NCBI GenBank assembly: GCA_947561715.1
Contig: OX387202.1
Coordinates: forward strand, 7,515,001 to 7,579,000
Source of the DNA: Ascidia mentula
Lineage: Eukaryota; Chordata; Ascidiacea; Phlebobranchia; Ascidiidae
Reading direction: 5' to 3'
Length of the DNA stretch: 64,000 nucleotides
Shown: positions 2,071 to 46,200 of the stretch, one piece after another
Position numbering within the stretch: position 1 is the first letter of the stretch
How the letters are laid out: the number at the start of each line of letters is the position of its first letter
Position numbers and translations under genes: made by a program
Notes under the pieces: model-generated
What the model saw: only the letters and a program-made list of their open reading frames with translations
Database searches by the model: none
Told to the model about the DNA's origin: nothing

Positions 2071-5000
2071 ATGCGACTTGCATTGTTCGTGGAAATTTTA
2101 TTCCTTGTCCGTGGTCAACTAATAAGCAGAGGTAGGTTAAATTGCCTGCAGCCAAATACTAAATGTCTTTCCTACACAAATGCGTGTCCTGTTGACAAAT
2201 TGACCGGTTGAGTTGTTTGCCAAATGTTTATGACGCAATAAACAGTTTTTTTGGACGCGCGCCTATGCGTTGCCTTCGTTTGGTCGAGACGTGTTATTGT
2301 ATTTTATACCTTGTAAATTCAGGATTAAGTGCGGAGACAGAAAGTGACCAGGAGGCTTCTGGTAAGTTTAATATTATTATGTTTTTATTAAGTTATCATA
2401 GTAGAATCTGAATCAGAAATTGTAACTCCGGGTTGTTTCGTGGGCTACAGCTTATCGTAAACACGCTGACACGCACCGTTGCATGAAAAAAAGTTTGAAC
2501 GCAATGTATCACAAAAACGCAATTAAAAGGCATTTTACGCTAGACGTTAAACTGTACTTGTCAAGACGCCGCTGGTTACGCAATGAGGTCACTCGCCTAT
2601 CGACTCTACCCTGGTTAATTGCTGGTATTAGCGGGGAAATCCCCTAATTAAGTCTAGTGATCTTTTCTCGCTCCTTTAAACTCATCATTGAGGTTTCAAT
2701 CAATGCAAATGCGGCGAATGGGAGACAACAATTTCTCATTTCTAAATTTCGAATTACATTGTATAACATTTAATAAAAATGTCACCAACCATTAAAATAT
2801 ACAATGAAAGGAAGAACGAACTTCAACACACATTGATCGTAGTGACCTAAATTACCCAAATTACTTCCTATTTAGTTACGTTTCTCATCCAAAAACACTT
2901 CATCGCCAGCCAACGCGACAATCATCGAATAAAACGTGTCTAATTGCTCAAATTGATTGATCCACATGAAAGCGAGTAGATGAAGAAGTCGTGAGCGATA
3001 TGATGTTACGTAATCGAGTGTGGCTATTTTTGTGAGAATCTAGTTTTTAACTGAATTCGATTTCCTGCGATATATTACAGTTTTTAAAATCAAGGTATAT
3101 TTGGTAATTACATGATTCAGAATCAACTCGCAAGCTAAGTCGGATCGCTGTTACGGTAAAATTCTTCTTTCCGGCACAGCGGTACAAATCCAACCATATG
3201 TGGTGTATCACAGACAATTAGAAGAGACTTAATGTTAGTAAATTTGTTCGCTAATACTGAGTGAGATTATATCGCTAATACTGAGTAGAAAATCTCACTC
3301 AGTATTGAAAAACGTTTGGATCTATTTTTTGTGGAAATTTGATCTTTGCGGAAAGAAAAATTCCCCTTCTACCACTAATTACTCGCAGGTGTTTTCGAAT
3401 CATGTAAATATATACTGAAACCATCGGTAATTCATATGTCCGCAATTTTAACATTGATAACAAATAAGCACTGAATTATCCGTGATTATTGTTGTCATTG
3501 TAGATGGTAATTGCAAATGTGGGGTCACGTGGTACCGGAGGGTCGCTTGTGTTCAAGGCGATAATCTAAAACAACGGTTTTGTGTACGCGTTGGCTGCTG
3601 TTACCATGACGACAAACAACATAACCAAGCGCCGAAATGTTATCAACAAACAGGTATTTTGTAAGTAATCGCAGTGATGAATTTACACAACAACAATTGT
3701 TTGCACTTTAGGTGTTTGTCCAGCTCAAGAGTGTCGAGTAAAAACGAAAGATCGGGAAGCTTGCAAATTCCCGAACCGTGTCTTTATCCCACGTCACACA
3801 TGCGAGCAGAGCGGTTGTTGTTATGATCTGTTCGCCAAACCAAACTGTTACAAATCAACATCATGTAAATTTCTTTTGTTTTAGTAGCTGCAGACAGTTC
3901 TGCACACTGTTTCGACCTATCAGATTAGTTAGCCGGCAAGACCGCCGACAGTCGCAAGCTGCACTGGTTAGACCTGTTAGGTCGAAACAATTAGTGTGCA
4001 CAACTGTCTGCAGCTCAATGATCGTTATTAGCTCATTTCTTGTAAATGAAAATACACTGGGAAAGTATATTGCTAAACGTTGTTAACAACCATTAGACAA
4101 AGTATTTAAATTTATGTTGTAACAAGCAATGAAATAAATAACATTTCAACATATTATTTAAGTTCATCGACCGGCTCCCTACCAACGCACAGTTCACCCA
4201 TACTTCGCAAAACTTGAAGATCGCAATAAACCGCATCTTTTTCACAAATTCGACCGACTTGGTCCTTTTCGGTTTATCAGTTCGTGCTTTGTAACGAAGA
4301 ATCGGTGTGGAAAGGTTGGAACAACAAGGTACAAATCAACTAAACAGTTGTTTCTTTCTTTCACACAAATCCCAACATTACGAATAGTCAAACGCAGTTT
4401 ACTCATGTGTATTTTTGTTAGGTCACAATGCATCCGATTTGGTTGTTGTTGGCAACCAAACTACAGTTTTGGTGTCGTAATTCCCGAATGTTATCGCTCT
4501 GCTCGCTACTGGCTCAACTATCCTGGTATTTTTACACCCTGTTAGTTTGTTTATAATTTATTAAATTAGTCGTTGTATTTTTTTTATATTGTAATAAAAG
4601 ACATGTAATTTTATGTTGTACAATTTTAAAGGCTAATCTATAAATTTTAGTGGTTAAATTCATACAATTACTGCACAATCCCGGACGTCGACAAAGATAA
4701 GTTCCCGACCGTAAACAGAGCCCGATGTTTAAAAATGACTTTAAGTTTGTGAGAAAGTTTCGTTTTATGCATTTTCATCATGGGTTTACCTTAACTGTTA
4801 CTTTTTGTAGAAATAACAGTTTAGTTGACAATACCAAATATTTTTAGTTGACGGAGCATCTTGGGAGAGTTGGAGTTCTTGGTCTCAATGCACAGGAAAC
4901 CAATGTTTAACTGGGGCACAACAGCGAACCAGATCTTGCAAAAACGACTATTTACCACATATGAAGTATGATGTCAAACTTAATTTATGAAACGTAGTCT

Positions 5001-43200: not shown

Positions 43201-46200
43201 TATGTGAATACCATTCATACAATGTATATGGTGTTTCTGATCCTTCAATATGTGAAGTTTACTTTGCATGCTATAACGAACAGGTGAACTAGCAAATGAC
43301 AAGCTAATATTATATTTTTTTGAGTATACTTTGCTAAAAAACTATGTTCTTGGAAAAAACGTGATTTTGTAAGTCTTGTCAAAACTGCATCCTACAATGT
43401 ATGCATCCCACTTATGCACAGCAATATAAAACATTTATGAAAAAACAAAATGTTAAACACTAAATCTAAACGGTCATATTTGTGCCAACTGTAATTTCAC
43501 AAAAACTTCAAAGACTTCTGTAGCAATGAATCATTTGTATCATATCTTTTTACTATCAGAATAACTACAAAACAACATATTTCTGATTTTTTTCAAAAAA
43601 AGTAGCTTACATCCAAATTGAAAAACTTAAGTAAAAGTAAATGTGGTATTACCTTAAATCTAAAAAACAAAGTTTTCTAATGTTAAAACTTAATGGCAGG
43701 ACTGGCAATCAACCAGATTTTCAAACTTTCAAAGAGTCTCCTGGAGTTCAGCTACTGATAACTTGCGTAACAGTGTTGAAATTGAAGGTAGTCCACAGAA
43801 AGTCATGATGGGATACACCTTGTTGTCGAAGTAAGGATGTTTGTTTAAAAAACATAATAACTAAGTTTGTAGGAAATAAAGTTCATTGTCAGGCATTTAA
43901 AATTTTGTGCAAAAAAAAATATATATATATATATCATTGGCAAATATGTAAACATTTTTATTGTTTGATTATCCATTGCATACATATTTCTTTCTATTTT
44001 TCAAACTTATTACTGGTGTAACTTTTGATTTGCAGGTGTTTTTTTTTTGCTGCAAAGTAATAATTTGTTTTCCAACAGGCAAGGAGGAGTTAAGGTGACA
44101 AAGAATGAAGTTGAAAATGTTTTGTCCAGAATGTTAACTGCAACTCAGGGGATGCAAGCAATTCCAAGTTGGTCAATTTGCTTTGCAATATCATTTTTTT
44201 TAAATCTTTCAAAGTGTCAAAGAATTTTTTTGTGCCAGACAGCTTGCGTATGATAAAACAACCCATATTTTAATTATAATTTAATTTGTAGCACTGCATT
44301 TTTTTGCAGTGTCTCATTATAACATTATAATAAGTGTTACTTATTAAACTTTTAGGATGGTCACTTTAAATTTGCTATTATCTTGTCTTAATGCAAGCAA
44401 AACGGTAGCTTGTCGTTTGCCATAAAACGGGATAAGGGAGGCCAGATCTGTCTGGCGGTGAAATTTGCAGTAAACAACTTTTCGAGCTTGATGCAGCTTA
44501 ATGCTATTATTTTGTAGCCATCAACTGTTCCCGTGCTTCAGAAAGTTTAACCGTGCCAGTGACATATGCTAAAGGCAACACATCCGAAGTTCTTCGTCGT
44601 ATTCCGCCAGCCCAGCGTAGTCGAGTGACTCCCGGGTTTCTTCAGTTTCGCCCCGTGGATCCTGAAGGAAATCCCAACGCCTTTTGTCCTGGAGTAAAGT
44701 AAGTGTTTCTTAATTTATTTATGACGAGATCAGATTAGCGTTTAAACGTTTCCTCAATATTTATGTACGCTAGTAACATATACACTGCTTATTTCCACGG
44801 TTTGTACTTATTATATACCGCACTTGTGTTATTGTAGTGCTTATTTGCAGCAGGAAAAAATGTGGGTTTTAGTTATATGGCACATTGCTGGTAGACATTT
44901 TAGGTGGCCCTTGTCCACAAACAAATTGTGTCCTAAAGAAAGGTCTTCATCCTGATGTAATTAATAATAGCCTCCAAAATCCGATAATATGACTGAAATA
45001 AATTACAACCTTTATCTCTTACGTTATAAAAAGCAGCGTGCTAATTTTTTGGTCTTGGCCCAATTTTTTGTTGTCGCAAAAGTTTTCAGTCACTTACAGA
45101 ATATATTGTGAGAAATCCGCAAACCTTAAATTTGAAACCAAAGGTCTACTCTGATAGTAACCTTGGTTACATTAGGAAAGAAACGAACTTCCGCAACCCA
45201 GCACCACTTCATCTTAAATGATCATGTCACAACGTTTTTTTACACGAATGGAGTTTCCCATGTTGTAGCATGAACATTTCCCATGTTTGTACGCCTTGTG
45301 TTACTTGAGTGTAAGGGACAACATGGCAATTTGTTAAGATGCCTGTTTTAGTTCCAGAAATGAGAATTAAATTTTAAACTGTAAGTTCAGCTAGAGAGCT
45401 GCATCTAATGATCAAGTTTGTTACGTCCGTTGTATGCACGGTTTATACGAGAGGATGTTGTCATAGTTACACTCTTCCATACATGCTTGGTTCTGCAGGT
45501 CCGAAGCTTGTCGTCAACAGTCAATTTGTATTGGGGGAATCAAACCAAAACCTGATAGTAGTTCGGACATAAAGAACACATGTGGAGATTTTGCAGGTGC
45601 TTTCACATTTGTAACTATTTAAGGAAAAAACGATCGTTTCTATCAACTACAACTTTTGTGCGAAAAACTTTGAGTTAATTAATCTGAATATGAATGCCGA
45701 AGCTATCATAGGTCTCATTGAGCAGACGTTACGAACACAACTGCTTTCATCATTAGTACTAATTTGGAATGAGTTGCTGAAAGGCGCGCGCCAGTGTCAA
45801 ATCTAAACTATTAATTCTGGAAAGACTTTATATCCAACACCACAAACCATCACTGATAGCTCCAGACCACTCTGCCTATTTAACACCTGGGTCCTCACTG
45901 CAGCCTGTCAGATGTGAAGGGGTGACGTCACCGCCGTAGACCTCCGAGTTAGCTCTGTCACGTGATGTGTTTCAGTTGTGTTGTTGTTTTTGTCTGCTCA
46001 GCTACCTGCCAAACTCTGCGCGCGCCTTTCAGCAACTCATTCCGAATTATTTAACTGATGATGAACGCAGTTGTGTTCAAAACATCTGCTTAATGAGAAG
46101 TATAATAGTTTTGGCATTCATATTCAGATTTAAACTTGTGGTGTGAATGTAAACACTGATATTTTGGCAGGATGGCGAGGTATGGCTTCCGATACACCTA

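What the first reader, a model, noticed from the sequence alone, without database searches (positions are those of the whole stretch)
3886..46130. A dispersed family of elements carrying outward-facing hammerhead-ribozyme-like cores
Three separate inverted repeats (3886-4015, 25141-25529, 45681-46130) each carry a decayed core of the form CTGATGA / stem II / GAAAC in both arms, always reading outward from the centre. Stem II differs between elements but is complementary in each (GACC/GGTC; GAAC/GTTC; CGCTT/AAGCG). Single cores occur at 14397, 16684 and 26993-27017 (minus), and a half core at about 381. Hammerheads are known in Penelope-like elements and retrozymes; the paired, head-out arrangement in short non-coding foldbacks is what seems unusual. 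That all belong to one family is inference.
Basis: partly seen in the sequence, partly recalled or inferred. Interest (0 to 1): 0.78.

Follow-up and report, generated by a model that had tools for sequence, protein, structure and literature searches.

The report
Head-to-head hammerhead retroelements: Penelope and retrozymes
The outward-facing ribozyme pairs are real: they are scars left by Penelope-like retrotransposons and by tiny gene-less "retrozymes" that insert in the same tell-tale way, which suggests that the big elements move the small ones.

Summary
The three inverted repeats carry hammerhead-like cores reading outward. Genome-wide, exact matches to three core patterns number 1,696, 1,825 and 165 (reversed-letter controls 42, 0 and 0).

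They are not one family. Elements 2 and 3 and the cores at 14397 and 16684 belong to pseudo-LTRs of several Penelope-like elements (PLEs) with "minimal" type I hammerheads; genomic relatives of most of them flank RT or GIY-YIG reading frames. Element 1 and the 26993-27017 core belong to a non-coding element with a canonical type I hammerhead and a 285-bp unit, i.e. a metazoan retrozyme.

Head-to-head pLTR pairs with a roughly 30-nt "tail" on one arm are a published PLE hallmark. What I did not find in print (limited searches) is that the retrozyme carries the same signature: outward pairs, tail on one arm, 8-14-bp target-site duplications, a different central junction in each pair. One insertion holds an inverted copy plus six direct cores, all sharing a private base, inside one duplication.

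Best reading: reverse transcription primed from both target strands by PLE machinery. This supports the proposed but unproven idea that PLEs mobilise animal retrozymes. No cleavage or transposition was tested.

The parts
354..391 (-).
   Evidence: 79.5% identity over a 44-column alignment to the L089 pLTR, E 1e-5
3886..3935 (-). Retrozyme hammerhead arm, left, decayed (element 1)
   Evidence: covariance model R1 20.6 bits, E 0.003; blast to L100 arm
3956..4015 (+). Retrozyme hammerhead arm, right (element 1), stem II GACC/GGTC, stem I AGCTGCA/TGCAGCT, cleavage triplet GTC
   Evidence: R1 54 bits, E 2e-12; 80% to L100 and L103 arms
14376..14472 (+). Solo, 5'-truncated pLTR arm of PLE-type family F1 (GAAC/GTTC) inserted in the last copy of a 1.09-kb tandem array; core at 14397
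   Evidence: empty site in the three other array copies aligned; 14-bp duplication TTTTGTGTTTCAGT at 14362-14375 and 14473-14486, present once in each of six other copies; 81% to L013 arm
16400..16611 (-). pLTR of PLE family GTCT, inverted arm, hammerhead core mostly deleted
   Evidence: 79.9% over 179 nt to L090 pLTR plus a 25-nt piece; inverted repeat 16399-16425/16744-16770
16673..16803 (+). pLTR of PLE family GTCT with intact hammerhead core at 16684 and the tail
   Evidence: 88.8% over 134 nt to L090; abutting 10-bp repeat TTTACACAAA at 16390-16399 and 16804-16813 (the random-anchor control was run only for 12 bp or more)
25140..25305 (-). pLTR arm of PLE family E2a, decayed core (element 2)
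   Evidence: 87.5% over 152 nt to L105; inverted repeat
25365..25530 (+). pLTR arm of PLE family E2a, decayed core (element 2)
   Evidence: 84.8% over 210 nt (25308-25511) to L105; no clear target-site duplication found
26966..27019 (-).
   Evidence: R1 69.8 bits, E 1e-16 over 26972-27025; 13-bp duplication CAGAAATTTTTAT at 26953-26965 and 27020-27032 (12 bp or more at 2 of 2000 random anchors); 96.5% to L100
45658..45761 (-). pLTR arm of PLE-type family F1 with tail (element 3, left)
   Evidence: 74% over 108 nt to L013 arm including its tail
45863..46132 (+). pLTR arm of PLE-type family F1 without tail (element 3, right): upstream piece 45863-45913, core part 46054-46132
   Evidence: 78% over 51 nt and 74% over 82 nt to L013; no clear target-site duplication left
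61023..61071 (+).
   Evidence: R1 16 bits, E 0.05; sequence; core pattern found 3 times in the genome, this one included, control 0

Best explanation
The features are insertion scars of hammerhead-bearing retroelements of two related kinds: autonomous Penelope-like elements (pLTRs with minimal type I hammerheads whose stem III is a short palindrome, so presumably acting as dimers) and a non-coding retrozyme with a canonical type I hammerhead. The outward pairs form during insertion. The element-bound enzyme cuts both target strands and primes reverse transcription on each. Both cDNAs start near the RNA's 3' side, one at each of two start sites about 30 nt apart, and run toward its 5' side until they stop and are joined. 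This gives head-to-head arms, a variable centre, a tail on one arm, and a duplicated target. The retrozyme has no protein and borrows this machinery from a PLE; when its RNA is circular, copying can go round several times and give direct arrays. Shown here: the anatomy, the families, the covariation, the duplications, the tail rule and the junction variety. Inferred: hammerhead activity, circular RNA, two-strand priming in vivo and the PLE helper.
For: PLE link: L090 has two direct hammerhead cores and an 841-aa frame, overlapping the first core, with RVT_1 and GIY-YIG matches. L089 has an RT frame and inverted 1,144-bp arms with identical cores. L109, of element 2's kind, has a GIY-YIG piece (several scores lie just under Pfam's cut-offs).

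Genome-wide GIY-YIG: 121 matches (a lower bound; 150 of 382 candidates scored); neighbours within 5 kb are 17 outward, 6 direct, 0 inward.

Signature: of 27 inverted-pair loci, 22 share an anchored repeat of at least 9 bp and 17 of at least 12 bp, against 22 and 0 of 702 mismatched flank pairs. In those 22 the tail is on one arm, 22-35 nt (17 loci) or 76-79 nt (5 loci, element-2 families). The eight independent retrozyme pairs all show a one-sided tail, with repeats of 8-14 bp.

Junctions differ in all seven independent retrozyme pairs measured. Array L096: 6 direct cores plus 1 inverted inside one 12-bp repeat; a private T is in 7 of 7 copies and in 0 of 14 copies of other loci.

Published in vitro work: a PLE protein cleaves and extends both strands, starts at two adjacent RNA sites, and the tail is the stretch between them, a signature called unique to PLEs (PMC11167929, abstract and passages).
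Against: The retrozyme tail has no detectable similarity to any PLE tail tested, so the helper is not identified; the test has little power, since even the two retrozyme subfamilies did not pass it. The tail of the element-2 families is about 77 nt, not 30. Five of 27 loci (L009, L014, L025, L094, L099) gave only 6-8-bp repeats, within the range of mismatched flanks. Elements 1, 2 and 3 have no clear duplication left, and element 2 seems extended on both arms. The in vitro paper saw no difference in start site between strands, whereas here one arm has the tail. Arms of L097 differ by 12%, so a shared template is not shown there (L101's 26% includes sequence beyond its junction). No F1 copy with a reading frame was seen. 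Single-strand folds of six arms are only weakly better than shuffles (z -1.0 to -2.6), and the best fold of the L090 arm is not a hammerhead. Of the 30 best RT loci only one has a core nearby, beside a separate RT gene. No RNA data.
Confidence: 0.77

Rival explanations
1. Snap-back: one cDNA folds back on itself, or an antisense RNA primes itself, and is copied a second time; this makes the palindrome.
For: Proposed for PLEs because palindromes occur at inverted junctions and the arrangement is head-to-head (PMC3846280, passages). Arms are sometimes near-identical (L096 99-100%, L100 99%, L102 97%).
Against: A folded-back cDNA would be expected to be copied to the end of the first arm, tail and target DNA included. 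Instead the second arm stops 22-35 or 76-79 nt short of the tail end in the 22 clear loci. At the seven retrozyme junctions the arms overlap by 0-3 nt (3 loci) or leave 6-56 nt unassigned (4 loci). This argument is inference.
Confidence: 0.15
2. Terminal-inverted-repeat DNA transposons or MITEs whose repeats happen to contain hammerhead-like words, moved by a transposase as a unit.
For: Short non-coding foldbacks flanked by short duplications look like MITEs.
Against: The two outer ends are not the same (tail on one arm), duplication length varies, and the central junction differs between copies, so the foldback is not copied as a unit. Solo truncated arms occur with duplications. Relatives encode RT and GIY-YIG.
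Confidence: 0.02
3. Retrozymes are moved by LINE machinery, and the inverted pairs are LINE-type twin priming.
For: LINEs make duplications of similar length and 5' inversions (recalled knowledge); the genome is rich in RT genes.
Against: In twin priming the two halves are different, adjacent parts of one RNA (recalled). Here both arms contain the same 3' part. The tail signature is described as unique to PLEs (PMC11167929, abstract).
Confidence: 0.06
4. The cores are chance words or mere sequence relics without ribozyme meaning.
For: Rfam hammerhead models do not reach their cut-offs (best 31.2 bits against 48.5; none in the window). Single-strand folds of six arms are weak. No compensatory change inside the retrozyme family.
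Against: Enrichment over reversed-letter controls. Stem II and stem I pairing kept across different families, with those stretches left free in the search pattern (0 of 5000 shuffles for each). The invariant core letters are no evidence, since most copies were picked by an exact core.
Confidence: 0.03

Closest known systems
Penelope-like elements with GIY-YIG endonuclease, pseudo-LTRs and tails (PMC3846280, 2013; PMC11167929, 2024; passages of both)
   Same: RT plus GIY-YIG frame, direct and inverted pLTRs, head-to-head arrangement, tail on one inverted pLTR, short target-site duplications (8-10 bp in the 2013 passages; 9-16 bp in the clear loci here, junction overlap included), hammerhead in the pLTR
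   Different: Nothing essential; the element-2 families have a longer tail (76-79 nt), and many copies here are non-coding foldbacks or solo arms
Metazoan non-LTR retrozymes (PMC7229834, 2020; abstract, passages and sections 13 and 17)
   Same: Non-coding unit of 285 bp, 47% GC, canonical type I hammerhead, direct tandem copies in one insertion, duplications longer than 4 bp
   Different: In the places sampled mostly solo arms and head-to-head pairs with a PLE-type one-sided tail, one tandem array only; the word 'inverted' does not occur in that paper's main text
Minimal dimeric hammerheads of PLEs and Terminons (2014 and 2017 papers seen only as cited in PMC7761336, passages)
   Same: Stem III reduced (here to a palindrome, ACGT or ACATGT), short stem I, in PLE pLTRs
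   Different: Here they are followed through inverted pairs; an extra base before stem II; dimer activity not tested

Membership tests
Penelope-like element (families F1, GTCT, GGCT, GGTT, E2) | Reverse transcriptase domain | tested here: met
   RVT_1 in L089 (GGTT; 29.7 bits, cut-off 29.6) and L090 (GTCT; 26.3 bits, below cut-off). Not met or not seen for the others: no RT match in the L109 (E2) pieces, no coding copy of F1 or GGCT seen
Penelope-like element (families F1, GTCT, GGCT, GGTT, E2) | GIY-YIG endonuclease | tested here: met
   L090 upstream frame 23.4 bits, cut-off 22.6; full L090 frame 20.9 and L109 piece 21.6, just below; the L089 minus-strand frame gave no family
Penelope-like element (families F1, GTCT, GGCT, GGTT, E2) | pLTRs, direct and inverted, with one-sided tail and target-site duplication | tested here: met
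   for the GTCT pair L094 only a 7-bp repeat
Penelope-like element (families F1, GTCT, GGCT, GGTT, E2) | Minimal type I hammerhead in the pLTR | tested here: met
   by sequence and pairing; self-cleavage not tested
Metazoan non-LTR retrozyme (element 1 family) | Canonical type I hammerhead with three stems and a cleavable triplet | tested here: met
   96.9% of cells paired in the named structure, GTC in 23 of 24 rows; rows were mostly picked by an exact core
Metazoan non-LTR retrozyme (element 1 family) | Short non-coding unit, low GC, tandem copies | tested here: met
   285-286-bp unit, 47% GC, longest stop-free run 105 codons in a trimer, six direct cores in L096; but it is the only array among the roughly 100 listed places
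Metazoan non-LTR retrozyme (element 1 family) | Expression as linear and circular self-cleaved RNA | not testable with these tools
   no RNA data
TIR DNA transposon or MITE | Identical terminal inverted repeats and fixed-length duplication, copied as a unit | tested here: not met
   one-sided tail, variable duplications, different junction in each retrozyme pair
Rfam hammerhead families | Score at or above the curated cut-off | tested here: not met
   window none; loci best 31.2 of 48.5 and 29.1 of 56.3 bits

The most novel reading that the evidence does not exclude
Animal retrozymes are mobilised by PLE enzymes from circular RNA. Two enzyme units on one RNA start at two neighbouring sites, each primed by one strand of the cut target, so each completed two-sided insertion is a head-to-head pair with a tail on exactly one arm. 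Going round the circle gives the array of direct copies on one side. The pair of start sites would then be strand-assigned in vivo, which the in vitro work did not see.
Probability: 0.4. Interest if true: 0.75.

Novelty: new variant of a known kind. Interest (0 to 1): 0.5.

Why it matters
Which machinery moves animal retrozymes was left open in the papers I saw: a 2020 paper calls PLEs 'a strong candidate' on grounds of co-occurrence, tandem copies and shared type I hammerheads (PMC7229834, section 17). A one-sided tail plus head-to-head arms in non-coding retrozyme insertions is a structural fingerprint that can be looked for in any animal genome and gives that idea a direct test. The regular 'tail on one arm' also constrains how PLEs start on the two target strands.

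Tried and rejected
Tried: Rfam scans of the window at gathering and permissive thresholds (no hammerhead). The strong permissive match of element 2 to MIR7533 seems to be hairpin shape only: the stretch also matches four further miRNA families, and no paper of the library holds the name. Search for a shared tail sequence between the retrozyme and PLE families (none). Compensatory changes inside the retrozyme family (none). Folding of six single arms (weak). F1 junctions were measured too, but two of seven (L009, L016) left about 200 nt unassigned and L013 overlapped, so I make no claim on F1 junctions. Identifying the animal: the mitochondrial-gene search did not complete, so the species stays unknown.

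Rejected: one common family for all elements; MITE; LINE twin priming; chance words.

Rows left out of the 27-locus duplication test: L015 (same segment as L014), L104 (same segment as L097), L017, L020/L050/L051/L095 (one truncated place), and the other pairs seen only later or in 3-kb loci (for instance L053). Boundaries of L001, L089, L092, L094, L096, L101 and L109 were set by hand. All 30 RT loci were scanned for cores; one had a core and was followed up (L081, as L091). The pair counts use only the roughly 100 listed of 1,696, 1,825 and 165 places and were made by eye.
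Full report
What was checked. The three inverted repeats and the listed cores are in the sequence as described, with the stem II letters given. Rfam finds no hammerhead in the window at gathering scores or at E<=10, so the case had to be made from copies elsewhere. The window lies in a 196-Mb genome of 79 contigs that can be searched.

Genome-wide copies. Three core patterns occur 1,696, 1,825 and 165 times, against 42, 0 and 0 for the same patterns read backwards. 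The first leaves stem II free. In the 30 loci fetched with it there are 22 distinct stem II regions (one, in L057, is probably a chance match). They pair at 3.59 of 4 positions, against 2.72 (sd 0.14) when partners are shuffled. The three positions of stem I next to the core (14 distinct combinations) pair at 2.29 of 3, against 1.27; in each case 0 of 5000 shuffles reached the observed value. The base before the predicted cut is C in 15 and T in 15 of 30. So the first pattern marks hammerhead-type motifs with an extra base before stem II and a palindromic ACGT in place of stem III, like the minimal PLE hammerheads of a review (PMC7761336, passages). Element 2's kind has ACATGT instead. Folds of six single arms are only weakly better than shuffles, z -1.0 to -2.6, and the best fold of the L090 arm is not a hammerhead.

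Two kinds of element. L090 holds two direct GTCT cores and an 841-aa frame, overlapping the first core, with RVT_1 and GIY-YIG matches. L089 holds an RT frame and inverted GGTT arms of 1,144 bp that are identical. L109, of element 2's kind, holds a broken frame with a GIY-YIG match and no RT match. Several of these scores lie just under Pfam's cut-offs. No coding F1 element was seen; F1 is filed with PLEs on hammerhead type, tail and duplication. Element 1 is different: canonical type I hammerhead with stems of 7, 5 and 4 pairs, no extra base, GTC before the cut in 23 of 24 rows, unit of 285-286 bp, 47% GC. A model built from those 24 rows finds 26972-27025 and both arms of element 1 in the window; in 13 other loci its only strong match is the retrozyme in L094, and the best PLE-type core (L010) has E 0.56. 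This fits a metazoan retrozyme. Inside this family pairs are conserved, not compensated; the rows were mostly picked by an exact core.

Window inventory. Retrozyme: 3886-4015 (pair), 26966-27019 (solo, 13-bp duplication). PLE-type F1: 14376-14472 (solo), 45658-46132 (pair with tail on the left arm). PLE GTCT: 16400-16803 (pair, 10-bp repeat; the left core is largely deleted). PLE E2: 25140-25530 (pair). PLE fragment: 354-391. A further hammerhead-like core: 61023-61071. The solo F1 arm sits in the last copy of a 1.09-kb tandem array; the three other copies aligned show the empty site, with a 14-bp duplication in the filled one.

Orientation. Within 1 kb the roughly 100 listed places give 9 outward pairs, 10 outward pairs and 5 direct neighbours, all in one array, and 4 outward pairs; no inward pair in these lists. 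Some pairs are duplicated segments (L014/L015, L097/L104, perhaps C1:4523657 and 4552390). Of the first ten 'single' retrozyme cores, five still have a decayed head-to-head partner (L110, L111, L116, L117, L118; L116 and L117 look alike), one lies behind another core in direct order (L112), four are alone and none has an inward partner. Of 30 PLE-type loci 11 have a head-to-head partner (L050 and L051 are one place; in L034 and L058 it is 0.9-1.1 kb off; L047 also has a short inward piece), 1 a direct one, 1 (L049) an inward one about 1.1 kb away, 17 none. GIY-YIG matches: 17 outward, 6 direct, 0 inward neighbours within 5 kb among 121.

Ends. For 27 inverted-pair loci I anchored on the end of the shorter arm and looked for a direct repeat beyond the other arm. 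22 of 27 share at least 9 bp and 17 of 27 at least 12 bp; among 702 mismatched flank pairs 22 reach 9 and none 12. In the 22 clear loci the longer arm carries a tail of 22-35 nt (17 loci: F1, GGTT, GGCT and the retrozyme) or 76-79 nt (5 loci of element 2's kind); in none is the tail near zero, as it would be if both arms ended alike. In the window, element 2 seems to have both arms extended and is an exception without a clear duplication. The central junction differs in all seven independent retrozyme pairs measured, so each pair is its own event and the foldback does not breed as a unit.

The array L096. One inverted core and six direct cores with 285-286-bp spacing lie inside a single 12-bp repeat, with the tail at the far end of the array. 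All seven copies share a T that none of 14 copies from other loci has. Copying of one circular RNA several times round, plus a second cDNA from the other target strand, explains this simply. A multimeric linear RNA would also do.

Mechanism. [quoted passage not shown] it saw no difference in start site between strands, and found that hammerhead mutants did not affect insertion in vitro. PMC3846280 (passages) describes head-to-head inverted pLTRs with a 31-bp tail on one of them and duplications of 8-10 bp, and suggests self-priming. The constant shortfall of the tailless arm argues for two starts and against snap-back, which should copy the tail too. That retrozymes show the same ends is what I add. 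Searches of the open library listed no paper on inverted retrozymes by title or abstract start. Of the papers listed there I opened only PMC7761336 (passages) and PMC7229834 (abstract, passages, two sections); PMC4918200, PMC11722881, PMC8969392 and PMC6431247 hold the words but were not opened, so this is a limited statement.

Consequences. A read-through transcript of a pair folds into a long hairpin that buries the hammerhead (L100), so pairs are probably dead ends for ribozyme action and likely sources of double-stranded RNA. This is inference. No cleavage, expression or transposition was tested, the animal is not identified, and the retrozyme tail resembles no PLE tail tested, so the helper is unknown.

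Noticed in passing
window 5906-15176: Tandem array of about nine 1.09-kb units (96-100% alike in several stretches, 60s to 80s per cent in others and in end copies), with eight copies of a short exon-like stretch at 6627-14248 followed by a GTAAG-like signal; six read VWGEWSAFDACIGDRCSNSGTQSRSRSCVPPQ and two have one change. It resembles a thrombospondin type 1 repeat (my reading; no domain search run). Looks like recent exon multiplication.
   Followed up: partly
window 15644-15717: A tRNA gene over the Rfam cut-off (41.5 bits).
   Followed up: no
genome C67:6134028-6146916: Two runs of direct GIY-YIG frames (559-892 aa, 2.87-kb spacing) pointing away from each other: it looks like a head-to-head junction between tandem PLE arrays.
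   Followed up: no
window 20073-20123 and 41600-41650; 19508-19551 and 42393-42436: Two pairs of inverted matches over 20 kb apart, perhaps paralogous exons; the frame at 20191-20559 resembles a fibrinogen/intelectin-type domain (recalled, not tested).
   Followed up: no
Rfam release 15 hammerhead models: In the four retrozyme loci scanned (L094, L096, L100, L103) no hammerhead family reaches its cut-off (best 31.2 of 48.5 bits), so scans at those cut-offs would probably miss this family of about 1,800 exact-core copies.
   Followed up: partly
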